Assembly: GCF_016653465.1 (NCBI RefSeq)
Contig: NZ_NHSQ01000043.1
Location: forward strand, 1 to 47,223
DNA: 47,223 nucleotides
Direction: 5' to 3'
Origin: Thiocystis minor
GTDB lineage: Bacteria > Pseudomonadota > Gammaproteobacteria > Chromatiales > Chromatiaceae
A program made the translations under genes and the position numbers. A model generated the notes under the pieces. It searched no databases, had not been told where the DNA came from, and was given only the letters and a program-made list of their open reading frames with translations. Shown here one piece after another: positions 9,091 through 43,422 of the stretch (the stretch's first letter is position 1; each line of letters begins with the position of its first letter).

Positions 9091-10101
9091 ATGAAATTTC
9101 CTGTTCTGATGCTGGGTCTGGCCCTAGCCATTGGCGCCGTGAACGCTGTCGTCGCCGCCGATGAGCCGATCGTCATCAAGTTCAGCCATGTGGTTGCGGC
9201 CGACACGCCCAAAGGCAAAGCCGCCGACTTTTTTGCCCAGCGCGCCGCCGAGCTGACCGGCGACAAGGTTAAGGTCGAAGTCTATCCCAACAGCGCGCTC
9301 TATAAGGATAAGGAGGAGTTGGAAGCGCTCCAGATCGGCGCGGTGCAGATGCTGGCGCCCTCGCTGGCCAAGTTCGGTCCGCTGGGCGTCAAGGATTTCG
9401 AAGCCTTCGATCTGCCCTACATCTTCACCGACTATGACGATCTGCACAGGGTCACCCAGGGTGAGATCGGCACGGCGATTCTGAGCAAGCTGGAACCCAA
9501 GGGCATTGTCGGACTGGCCTTCTGGGATAACGGCTTCAAGTCTTTCTCGGCCAATTTCCCGATCAAGGCACCCGAGGACATGAAGGGCAAGAAGTTCCGT
9601 ATCCAGTCCTCCAAGGTGTTGGAGGAACAGATGCGCGCACTCAGGGCACTGCCACAGGTCATGGCCTTTTCCGAGGTCTATCAGGCGCTCGATACCGGCG
9701 TGGTGGACGGCACCGAAAACCCGCCGTCCAATATGTACACCCAGAAAATGCATGAGGTGCAAACGAACCTGACCCTGACCCAGCATGGTTATCTGGGTTA
9801 CGCGGTCATCGTGAATAAAAAATTCTGGGCCGGTCTCCCGGAGGATGTTCGTGGCCAATTAGAGCAGGCCATGAAAGAGTCGACCAAGCTGGCCAACCGG
9901 ATTGCCAAGGAAGAGAACGATCAGGCATTGGCGGGGATCGAGGCGAGCGGCAAGACCAAGGTCTATACGCCGACCGACGAAGAGAAACTGGCCTTCAAGC
10001 GGAAGCTGGTGCCCGTGCATGACAAGATGGCTTCGCGGGTCGGCAAGGAGCTGATCCAGTCCATCTATCAGGCAACCGGTTTCAAGCCTGATTCGCTTTA
10101 A
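9091..10101 (+). CDS. dctP: TRAP transporter periplasmic binding protein (DctP type)
   Basis: Periplasmic solute receptor of a tripartite ATP-independent transporter, delivering a carboxylate (probably a C4-dicarboxylate such as malate or succinate) to the DctQM membrane complex. A signal peptide covers residues 1-23 and is cut after VVA-A. The mature protein has the family's IKFSHVV start, the KKFRIQSS segment holding the carboxylate-binding Arg, and an ALDTGVVDGTENPP motif. A GGAGGAA site precedes the ATG. The stop codon TAA is part of the motif TTTAAACCGCGT, which recurs in this window. Exact substrate cannot be read from sequence; a malic enzyme further along would suit malate import. Confidence 0.93.
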   Translation: MKFPVLMLGLALAIGAVNAVVAADEPIVIKFSHVVAADTPKGKAADFFAQRAAELTGDKVKVEVYPNSALYKDKEELEALQIGAVQMLAPSLAKFGPLGVKDFEAFDLPYIFTDYDDLHRVTQGEIGTAILSKLEPKGIVGLAFWDNGFKSFSANFPIKAPEDMKGKKFRIQSSKVLEEQMRALRALPQVMAFSEVYQALDTGVVDGTENPPSNMYTQKMHEVQTNLTLTQHGYLGYAVIVNKKFWAGLPEDVRGQLEQAMKESTKLANRIAKEENDQALAGIEASGKTKVYTPTDEEKLAFKRKLVPVHDKMASRVGKELIQSIYQATGFKPDSL

Positions 10102-10183
10102 ACCGCGTCATAAGTGGCCGGCGTCGTTTCGAGTGAGCCCGTCCTCACGACAACCAACGGCGACCGGCGGAACGCGGTTTAAA
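10097..10183. repeat. Inverted repeat between dctP and dctQ
   Basis: TTTAAACCGCGT at 10097-10108 is repeated as its perfect 12-bp reverse complement, ACGCGGTTTAAA, at 10172-10183. The left arm contains the dctP stop codon and the right arm ends just before the dctQ ribosome-binding site (GGAG at about 10186). In mRNA the arms could pair across about 63 nt. Such a stem could protect the abundant dctP message and reduce read-through into dctQM; that role is inference. Confidence 0.7.
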
Positions 10184-10198
10184 TTGGAGCATCCGCTG

Positions 10199-10912
10199 AT
10201 GAAGTTGCTCGACCATCTCGAAGAATGGCTCATCATCCTGCTCATGGGCGGCGCGACTCTGATCGTGTTCGTCTCGGTCCTGCACCGTTACGCCTCCGGT
10301 TACGAGATCCCGGTCGTGCAGGACTGGCTGCTGTCGCTCAATTTCGGCTGGACCCAGGAGTTGTGCATCATCCTCTTCGTCTGGATGGCCAAGTTCGGCG
10401 CCGCCTACGGGGTGCGCACCGGTATCCATGTCGGCGTCGACGTGCTAGTCAACCGGCTCTCGGACCGCAAACGCGCCAAGGTCATCCTCTTCGGCCTGTT
10501 GGCCGGCGCGCTCTTCACCGCCATCGTCGCCACGCTCGGCACCCGCTTCGTCTGGGAGAACGGCGCGCACTACGCCTATTTGAGCACCTTGGGCCTGGAC
10601 ACCGGCGATCTCCCGGAAGGTCCGACCACGCCCGACCTCGAATGGCCAACCTGGATCGTCTATCTGGCGGTGCCGCTGGGTTCGACCCTGATGTGTTTCC
10701 GCTTTCTGCAGGTCGCCTACGGCTTCCTCCGCACCGGCGAGCTACCGCAGCACGATCACAGCCATGTCGAAGGTCTCACGAAAGAGCCGCTGCCGGTCGA
10801 TGTCAATATCTACGACATGGACGACAACCTGCACTTCCGCGATCTCAAACACCGACCCGTGGGTGAGTCCGGCAAGTCGGGCGATTCCGACCGCGAGGAC
10901 CGTCCATCATGA
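10199..10912 (+). CDS. dctQ: TRAP transporter small membrane subunit (DctQ)
   Basis: Small four-helix integral membrane subunit that couples the periplasmic receptor to the large DctM permease. Hydrophobic segments begin at about residues 10, 60, 95 and 155 of the 237-residue protein, and the conserved FGWTQELCIILFVWM and GAAYGVRTGIHVGVD stretches are present. The C-terminal tail of about 60 residues is charged, His-rich and longer than usual. The ATG at 10199 follows GGAG by 9 bp; a GTG at 10133 is in frame but would put the 12-bp inverted repeat inside the gene. It overlaps dctM by the ATGA tetranucleotide. Confidence 0.9.
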   Translation: MKLLDHLEEWLIILLMGGATLIVFVSVLHRYASGYEIPVVQDWLLSLNFGWTQELCIILFVWMAKFGAAYGVRTGIHVGVDVLVNRLSDRKRAKVILFGLLAGALFTAIVATLGTRFVWENGAHYAYLSTLGLDTGDLPEGPTTPDLEWPTWIVYLAVPLGSTLMCFRFLQVAYGFLRTGELPQHDHSHVEGLTKEPLPVDVNIYDMDDNLHFRDLKHRPVGESGKSGDSDREDRPS

Positions 10913-41769: not shown

Positions 41770-41771
41770 CT

Positions 41772-42377
41772 TCACAAAGCGCCCTTGGTCGAGGGCAGAA
41801 TGCCGGCCATGCGCGGATCGGGCTCGACAGCCATGCGCAGCGCGCGCCCGAACGCCTTGAAGATGGTCTCGGCCTGATGATGCGCATTGACGCCGCGCAG
41901 GTTATCGATATGCAGGGTCATGCCCGCGTGATTGACCAGACCCTGGAAAAACTCATGGAAGAGGTCTGCGTCGAAGGCGCCGATCAGGGCACGGGTGAAA
42001 TCGACCTGATAGACCAAACCGGGCCGGCCGGAGAGGTCGATGACCACGCGCGAAAGCGCCTCGTCCAGCGGCACATAGGCATGACCGTAGCGACGGATGC
42101 CCTGCTTGTCGCCCAATGCGCTGGCCAGCGCCTGACCGAGCGTGATCCCGAGATCCTCGACCGTGTGATGGGCGTCGATGTGCAGATCGCCCACCGCCTC
42201 GATGTCGAGATCGATCAGACCGTGGCGGGCCACCTGATCGAGCATGTGATCCAGAAAGGGCACGTCGGTCTGGAAACGCGAACGGCCGCTGCCGTCCAGA
42301 TCCAGGGTGACGTTGATCCGGGTTTCCAGTGTCTTGCGTTCGATGTGCGCCCGACGAGGAAGGGTATCGACAGCCAT
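41772..42377 (-). CDS. hisB: Imidazoleglycerol-phosphate dehydratase (HisB)
   Basis: Dehydrates imidazole-glycerol phosphate in histidine synthesis. A monofunctional 201-residue enzyme without the phosphatase domain of enteric HisB. The two metal-binding His-rich motifs HIDAHHTVEDLGI and GVNAHHQAETIFK are present, as is FLDHMLDQVARHG. First his gene of this minus-strand group. Confidence 0.96.
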   Translation of the reverse strand: MAVDTLPRRAHIERKTLETRINVTLDLDGSGRSRFQTDVPFLDHMLDQVARHGLIDLDIEAVGDLHIDAHHTVEDLGITLGQALASALGDKQGIRRYGHAYVPLDEALSRVVIDLSGRPGLVYQVDFTRALIGAFDADLFHEFFQGLVNHAGMTLHIDNLRGVNAHHQAETIFKAFGRALRMAVEPDPRMAGILPSTKGAL

Positions 42378-42519
42378 TGAATGATCGTTGCGTGGCCTGA
42401 AAGGCTGTCATTTAACCACAGACGGGCACCGAATCAGAAGACCCGCAATCAACGCAACGCCGATGGATTGAGGGACGTGCGAGGCAAGACAAAACGACAC
42501 CTGTCTTACCCCGCGCGGT

Positions 42520-43422
42520 TTAACGCTCGGTCAGGTAGATGTCGACCCGACGGTTCCTGCTTCGACCCTGTGCAGTGTCATTGCTGACGATCGGCTTGGT
42601 CTCGCCCATCCCCTCGGCGCGAATGCGGTCCTGCGCGACTCCCAGATCGACCAACGCCGCCTTGACGGCAATGGCGCGCTGTTCGGACAGGTCGAGATTC
42701 CGGGCCGCATTGCCCAGGCTGTCGGTATGACCTTGCAGCAGAACCGTCAGATTCGGATGCCGGCCCAAAAACTCCGCGACCTTTTCCAGACTTGCCGACC
42801 GTTCGGACGGCAGAGCGGCCCCGCCCATCGGGAAATTCAGATCGGATTCGGTGAGCGAAACCAACACGCCGTCATCCGTGAATTGAGCATTGAGGGTGGC
42901 ATAATCACGCTTAAGTTGAGCGAGTGCATCGTCCCGTGCCTGAGCAGATGCGTTGTCTTCCGCCAGTTCCCGCTGGTGCGCTTGTGCGATGGCGGCCAGA
43001 TCGTCGGCGATACGCTGACGCTCGTGCTCGAACGCCTTGGCCTGCTGGTCCTTCCATGCCTTCAGGTCATCCTCCAAGGTCTGAACCTTTTGCTCCGTGA
43101 CCGCCAGCAGTTCGCGCATGGCCTGCGTTTCCTGGACCAGCCGAGGATCCGACCCCGGCTCAGGCGCGCGCGCGGAGGGCGCGTCGGATGCCGCGGCGGC
43201 GACCGACTCGGCCGGACTCGGGGTCGCGATCCCGGCATGCCTGTCTTCCTGATCGACGGACGTCATCGGCGGCGTCGCGTCGACCAGATAAACGAGCAAC
43301 AGTCCCGAGGCGAACATCAGGATCAGAAAACCGACCGCCAGGAGCGATTTTTGCTGTAACGCTGACTCTGGTTTTCGTTCTGGCGCTGACTGCGTCGGTG
43401 GTGCTGGATTGGCGTCGGACAT
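42520..43422 (-). CDS. OmpA-family protein with N-terminal membrane anchor
   Basis: A 300-residue envelope protein. A single membrane segment (about residues 26-47, LLAVGFLILMFASGLLLVYL) is followed by a Pro/Ala-rich linker, a long coiled coil (about 95-180) and a C-terminal OmpA/MotB peptidoglycan-binding domain (about 190-300) with LLQGHTDSLGNAARNLDLSE and NRRVDIYL. The topology suggests an inner-membrane anchor reaching the cell wall. Its TAA stop lies in the motif TAAACCGCG. No motA-like partner is adjacent. Confidence 0.88.
   Translation of the reverse strand: MSDANPAPPTQSAPERKPESALQQKSLLAVGFLILMFASGLLLVYLVDATPPMTSVDQEDRHAGIATPSPAESVAAAASDAPSARAPEPGSDPRLVQETQAMRELLAVTEQKVQTLEDDLKAWKDQQAKAFEHERQRIADDLAAIAQAHQRELAEDNASAQARDDALAQLKRDYATLNAQFTDDGVLVSLTESDLNFPMGGAALPSERSASLEKVAEFLGRHPNLTVLLQGHTDSLGNAARNLDLSEQRAIAVKAALVDLGVAQDRIRAEGMGETKPIVSNDTAQGRSRNRRVDIYLTER

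What the first reader, a model, noticed from the sequence alone, without database searches (positions are those of the whole stretch)
10097..42522. Recurrent 9-mer TAAACCGCG, often supplying the stop codon
Exact copies on either strand lie at 10099, 10173, 37489, 39247, 39428, 40939 and 42514: seven where chance predicts well under one (two strands, 47 kb). In four (dctP, modE, hisA, the OmpA-like gene) the TAA is the stop codon and ACCGCG begins the 3' UTR. All are intergenic. Near-matches occur at 22764, 24438 and 39352. Such a stop-linked motif could be a recognition site for an RNase, a protein, or a repeat that inserts at stop codons.
Basis: seen in the sequence. Interest (0 to 1): 0.8.

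Follow-up and report, generated by a model that had tools for sequence, protein, structure and literature searches.

The report
Mobile repeat that spares stop codons
The repeated nine-letter motif is the end of a small mobile DNA element of purple sulfur bacteria; it inserts at TA dinucleotides, and when that TA lies in a TAA or TAG stop codon the insertion rebuilds a TAA, so the gene keeps its end.

Summary
The motif is real: seven exact copies in the window (0.31 expected) and 285 in the genome (73 for the reversed control). It is the end of a mobile element of about 192 bp: two ~85-bp halves in opposite orientation around a ~22-bp AT-rich centre, with ~25-bp outer inverted repeats and four motif copies. 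Window 39247-39436 is a full copy, 10099-10181 one half; 37489, 40939 and 42514 look like relics.

Filled/empty comparisons show insertion at TA with TA duplicated: 13 of 16 comparisons fit 'TA once' best, and one site is exactly empty in three Thiocapsa genomes. Flanks are Y...R, so the target is YTAR. As the element continues with A, insertion into TAA or TAG restores TAA. Of 12 genes with a close element-free homologue, 9 end at the same residue. Only 21 of 78 sampled motifs are stops.

Damaged copies of an IS630-family transposase gene carry the same ends. So this is an IS630-derived MITE family, new as far as I could find, seen so far only in Chromatiaceae.

The parts
39247..39331 (+). 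Left half (outer end left) of a full element; outer TA at 39247-39248
   Evidence: unit profile E 2.6e-19 (profile trained on this family, this copy included); last 9 bases one mismatch
39332..39352 (.). AT-rich centre of the element, 21 bp
   Evidence: spacer is 22-23 bp in 85 of 103 doubles
39353..39436 (-). Right half in opposite orientation; outer TA at 39435-39436. The whole element is absent from this place in G005
   Evidence: unit profile E 1.6e-13; absence in G005
10099..10181 (+). One half-unit (83 bp), no partner half detected; its first TAA is the stop of dctP
   Evidence: profile E 4.5e-8; also present in G004 and G039
42455..42522 (-). Decayed element; outer end is the stop of the OmpA-domain gene
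   Evidence: weak profile hit E 0.93; G004 similar, G005 diverged with the stop kept
40928..40947 (-). Relic outer end (about 20 bp) between hisA and the next gene
   Evidence: weak profile hit E 4.7; present in G000, G004, G005, absent in seven other relatives
37489..37497 (-). Solo motif at the stop of the ModE-like gene, probably a relic
   Evidence: no profile hit; G004 and G005 show end-like sequence here
9091..10101 (+). DctP solute-binding protein gene ending in the motif
   Evidence: Pfam DctP
37495..38373 (-). ModE-like regulator gene ending in the motif
   Evidence: Pfam TOBE and HTH_1
40945..41688 (-). hisA ending in the motif
   Evidence: Pfam His_biosynth
42520..43422 (-). OmpA-domain gene ending in the motif
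   Evidence: Pfam OmpA
29928..29930 (-). TAG stop without an element; in G005 the same residue is followed by TAA and an element-like end

Best explanation
TAAACCGCG is the duplicated target TA plus the first seven bases of a non-autonomous transposable element (a MITE) derived from an IS630-family insertion sequence. The full element is about 192 bp: ~25-bp outer inverted repeats, two ~85-bp halves in opposite orientation that also carry the motif at their inner ends, and a ~22-bp AT-rich centre. An IS630-type transposase inserts it at YTAR and duplicates the TA. In a TAA or TAG stop codon, TA plus the element's A rebuilds TAA and the protein is unchanged, so such insertions are tolerated and collect at gene ends. 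Copies then decay to one half or one end, leaving solo motifs. Shown by sequence: anatomy, mobility between genomes, TA duplication, unchanged stops at several sites, shared ends with an IS630 gene. Inferred: that this IS supplied the enzyme, and tolerance (not targeting) as the cause of the stop excess.
For: 76 convergent pairs against 0 in the control. 323 distinct units: 204 have a neighbour on the inner side only, 118 none, 1 on both sides. 103 doubles: 192 bp in 51, flanks Y...R in 97, independent (p=0.42), no longer duplication except one 3-base case. TA once best in 13 of 16 comparisons at 10 sites, letters exactly TA in 9 comparisons at 6 sites; also L013 in G000/G005 against L271 in G004. 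Nine of 12 genes keep the stop residue. Two homologous IS630 genes (83% identical) in G004 have their stop about 10 bp inside an outer end (39.8 and 34.3 bits; random 99.99% quantile -2.6), and a third, broken copy in G005 has an outer end upstream (22.2 bits); NCBIfam calls it IS630 above cut-off.
Against: Three of 16 comparisons favour another model, and four of the 13 read CA or TT, two by small margins. One G000/G004 site lacks the TA (L060:17152); the window's own 39247 site reads GAC in G005. Four of the 9 unchanged stops are TGA in the element-free homologue, which is not a TA target. No intact IS630 copy with both ends was seen; one copy is cut by a contig end. Most alignable G000/G005 sites are filled in both, so turnover is slow. 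Only one strong IS-sharing genus pair was examined.
Confidence: 0.93

Rival explanations
1. A REP/REPIN system: paired palindromes moved as single-stranded DNA by a Y1 (RAYT) transposase, without target duplication.
For: Paired inverted units in high copy between genes. Y1_Tnp genes are present (13 matches in G000). A Y1 gene of one type (judged by profile range and score; sequence seen in three) occurs in G000, G004, G005, G024, G029, G037 and G039 and was not seen in G001, G002, G003, G006. Its NCBIfam best hit is REP-associated tyrosine transposase, but under the cut-off (67.7 of 80 bits).
Against: None of 38 Y1 loci examined (8 of 13 in G000, 30 of 63 in relatives) holds an exact motif within about 1.5 kb; one degenerate unit lies ~0.4 kb beyond the Y1 gene in G005 only. 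Ends start TAAACC, not GTAG or CGTC. TA is duplicated and an IS630 gene bears the ends.
Confidence: 0.04
2. A conserved cis signal at gene 3' ends (terminator, mRNA-stability or RNase site) kept by selection rather than a mobile element.
For: Hairpin-forming (RNA z -4.8 and -9.5) and often next to stops; elements as 3' UTRs could still be used this way.
Against: Copies are present or absent at the same place in close relatives; 34 of 53 elements outside genes are not at a stop.
Confidence: 0.03
3. The stop excess reflects active targeting of stop codons, not only tolerance.
For: 19 of 53 elements end at a stop against 17.4% of YTAR sites in stops or intergenic DNA (p=0.001); 6 of 7 TA-keeping empty sites are stops of frames of 200 codons or more against 144 of 935.
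Against: Sample contigs were mostly chosen for bearing the motif; empty sites needed conserved flanks, which favours gene ends; long antisense frames occur in GC-rich DNA.
Confidence: 0.2

Closest known systems
RUP of Streptococcus pneumoniae (PMC2229807, passages read)
   Same: Small non-coding element with inverted repeats, inserts at TA, ends like an IS630 element
   Different: 107 bp and other sequence and host; no inner motif pair reported in the passages seen
Correia/NEMIS elements of Neisseria (PMC2229807, passages read)
   Same: Under 200 bp, ~24-bp inverted repeats, TA at the ends, target duplication, hairpin RNA
   Different: Other sequence, host and sizes (~107 and ~155 bp)
BOX of S. 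pneumoniae (PMC3049150, section 9 read)
   Same: Supplies the stop codon of 36 genes without clear truncation
   Different: Modular boxA/B/C structure; the paper part read gives no TA-duplication mechanism for it
REP/REPIN with RAYT (PMC3733652, abstract, outline and passages read; PMC3116915 listing only)
   Same: Paired inverted palindromes in high copy, often downstream of genes
   Different: No GTAG/CGTC tag, no linked RAYT, TA duplication, IS630 ends

Membership tests
Bacterial TA-flanked MITE (as described in PMC2229807) | Under 200 bp and repeated | tested here: met
   192 bp in 51 of 103 doubles, range 184-200; 76 exact pairs in one genome
Bacterial TA-flanked MITE (as described in PMC2229807) | Terminal inverted repeats | tested here: met
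   Outer ends pair over ~25 bp in two folded copies
Bacterial TA-flanked MITE (as described in PMC2229807) | TA at both termini and target-site duplication | tested here: met
   TA at both ends in 89 of 103 doubles; TA once in 13 of 16 empty-site comparisons
Bacterial TA-flanked MITE (as described in PMC2229807) | A+T-rich overall | tested here: not met
   Only the centre is AT-rich; the halves are GC-rich by inspection. The review lists YPAL as an exception to this trait too
IS630-derived MITE | Ends shared with an IS630-family insertion sequence | tested here: met
   Right ends in L336 and L329, upstream end in L384; transposase NF033545 above cut-off. All copies damaged or cut
IS630-derived MITE | Moved in trans by that transposase | not testable with these tools
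   Needs a transposition assay
REPIN/RAYT | GTAG or CGTC tag at the repeat foot | tested here: not met
   Consensus outer end TAAACCGCGYCCAG
REPIN/RAYT | RAYT gene flanked by the repeats | tested here: not met
   0 of 38 Y1 loci examined with an exact motif within ~1.5 kb; 38 of 76 matches examined

The most novel reading that the evidence does not exclude
Stop codons act as a safe harbour that shaped this family: a YTAR target plus an element that begins with A makes hits in TAA or TAG stops silent on either strand, even where two frames share one TA, so the element spreads at gene ends and its hairpin becomes the gene's new 3' UTR. TA-duplicating elements elsewhere may follow the same rule.
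Probability: 0.35. Interest if true: 0.65.

Novelty: new member of a known kind. Interest (0 to 1): 0.47.

Why it matters
It turns an odd 'motif at stop codons' into a testable mechanism: TA duplication plus a leading A gives stop-preserving insertion. The same rule may explain why other bacterial repeats such as BOX supply stop codons without truncating proteins. It adds an abundant mobile family, with its IS630 relative, to purple sulfur bacteria, and filled/empty alleles between species that let its effect on 3' ends be measured.

Tried and rejected
REPIN/RAYT was my first reading (notes 1-3); dropped when no Y1 locus held an exact motif and TA duplications appeared. This raised my confidence in the IS630 origin. 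A 1135-bp convergent pair in G005 proved to be an IS982-family IS (NF033520) inside an element's centre. Other wide pairs held what look by eye like ordinary genes; L350, L351 and L372 were fetched and not examined. Plasmid and phage collections: no match to window 39240-39445. Rfam: none at gathering score in the window. Paper searches showed no listed title on this family; most listed papers were not read, and subscription papers are mostly not held.

A first homologue filter was too strict (15 genes, 3 of 5 close ones with the same stop); one search relaxed it (31 genes). An earlier count said 14 of 17; the count is 13 of 16. Entry 5 says no DDE_3 locus carries the ends; that is wrong, see entry 7.

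Full report
Observation. The seven exact copies exist as stated, with 0.31 expected, and four supply a stop codon. The own genome holds 285 copies against 73 for the reversed control, and 76 convergent pairs of ends 70-98 bp long against none. The motif is therefore one end of a larger unit.

Host and spread. Paired ends occur in 10 of 92 genomes searched, own genome included. All ten are in the window's family (57 genomes searched); 35 genomes of other families of the class have none (the reversed control matched once, in G006). Counts run from 1 to 270 pairs. An exact 25-base end was found in 114 stretches of named genomes; the 80 listed are Thiocapsa, Lamprocystis, Thiobaca, Thiocystis or unnamed Chromatiaceae. 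G004, of the window's genus, is identical over the 1,700 bases compared to a record titled uncultured Thiocystis sp., so the window is probably Thiocystis.

Anatomy. From the loci then held, 323 distinct units were collected; 192 are exactly 85 bp. The outer end reads TAAACCGCGYCCAGNGCGNTATGCG; the inner end shares only the first ~11 bases. Units pair inner end to inner end: 204 have a neighbour on the inner side only, 118 have none, 1 has both. In 103 doubles the spacer is 22-23 bp in 85 and the total is 192 bp in 51. Units without a neighbour still carry about 24 AT-rich bases beyond the inner end, as expected of doubles that lost one half; at one site G005 has the full double where G000 has one half (L013/L313). 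A profile of the units gives 40 hits at E<1e-3 in 827,276 bp and 0 in the reversed sequence (some hits are training members). Outer ends pair when two full copies are folded as RNA.

Mobility and target. The full element at window 39247-39436 is missing from the same place in G005, which has a 95% identical copy elsewhere. Most other alignable sites were filled in both or too diverged. I therefore searched joined flanks of 26 Thiocapsa elements in four Thiocapsa genomes. 'Flank-TA-flank' was the best of three models in 13 of 16 comparisons. At the L134 site three genomes read GGCTCC-TA-GAGGGT where the filled allele reads GGCTCC[TAAACC...GGTTTA]GAGGGT. The letters are exactly TA in 9 comparisons at 6 sites; four more read CA or TT; three favour another model. 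Flanks of the 103 doubles are Y and R in 97, independent of each other (p=0.42). The target is YTAR and TA is duplicated.

The enzyme. Forty-one DDE_3 (IS630-type) matches in ten genomes were examined with 1.5-kb flanks where the contig allowed. Two genes in G004 (L336, L329; 83% identical over 189 residues) have their stop about 10 bp inside an outer end of the element, which points away from the gene, the reverse of what a MITE at a gene's stop would show. These ends score 39.8 and 34.3 bits, against a mean of 38.9 for the units that built the matrix and -2.6 for the 99.99% quantile of random positions. A third, broken copy in G005 (L384) has an outer end about 650 bp upstream of its conserved part (22.2 bits). 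NCBIfam names the L336 protein IS630 family above its cut-off, and its weak best PDB matches are Tc1/mariner transposases (E 0.007 to 0.2). No intact copy was seen. The MITE is thus best read as an internally deleted or end-derived relative of this IS630 element; how the inner motif pair arose is open.

Why stop codons. TA plus the element's A is TAA, so an insertion into TAA or TAG leaves the gene ending at the same residue. Of 153 independent open frames ending in the exact motif, 31 had an element-free homologue in held sequence. Of the 12 at 85% identity or more, 9 end at the same residue and all 12 within 5; at 60% or more it is 13 of 23, and at 40% or more 14 of 28. The element-free stops of the 9 are 3 TAA, 2 TAG and 4 TGA; TGA cases need a later change or another route. 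In seven empty sites that keep TA, six have it as the stop of an open frame of 200 codons or more, against 144 of 935 YTAR sites outside gene bodies (p=8e-5). Such sites needed conserved flanks and long antisense frames are common, so this overstates the effect. In the sample 19 of 53 elements outside genes end at a stop against 17.4% expected (p=0.001). That sample is biased: its contigs were mostly chosen for bearing the motif (78 copies in 0.83 Mb against 285 in 5.3 Mb), element calls go down to E<1, and genes come from my own codon-usage caller. hisA shows another route: seven relatives lack the relic, and in three compared HisA ends 3-4 residues later, so there the element made a new stop.

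Known or new. Small TA-flanked MITEs are a known kind (PMC2229807, passages read), RUP is linked to IS630-Spn1 there, and stop supply by a repeat is reported for BOX (PMC3049150, section 9 read). I found no report of this family in the searches named under Tried and rejected. I file it as a new family of a known kind, with a general explanation of its stop-codon habit.

Noticed in passing
L347:696-1640 (G005): An IS982-family insertion sequence (NF033520 above cut-off) sits in the AT-rich centre of a full element, between its two halves.
   Followed up: partly
L203:1607-1798 (filled), L356 (empty): At the empty site one TA closes a frame on each strand (48 and 523 open codons); in the filled allele both sides read TAA.
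   Followed up: partly
G000 contig ends C66, C149, C181 (L032, L033, L034): The same IS200-like end breaks three contigs; in C66 and C181 it lies next to an element end.
   Followed up: no
L029:1405-2175 and orthologues: A Y1 transposase gene of RAYT type, single copy, followed by a cupin-like gene in G000, G005 and G039; the element in G005 sits at that downstream gene's stop.
   Followed up: partly
L056 left of 4826; L016 left of 1501; window about 24380-24436: Short tandem repeats (CAACGA-type, GATGACG-type) next to elements or to a near-match of the motif.
   Followed up: no
L186:7108-7298, L168 and others: Several 8-kb Thiocapsa loci hold two full elements, so local density can be high.
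   Followed up: no
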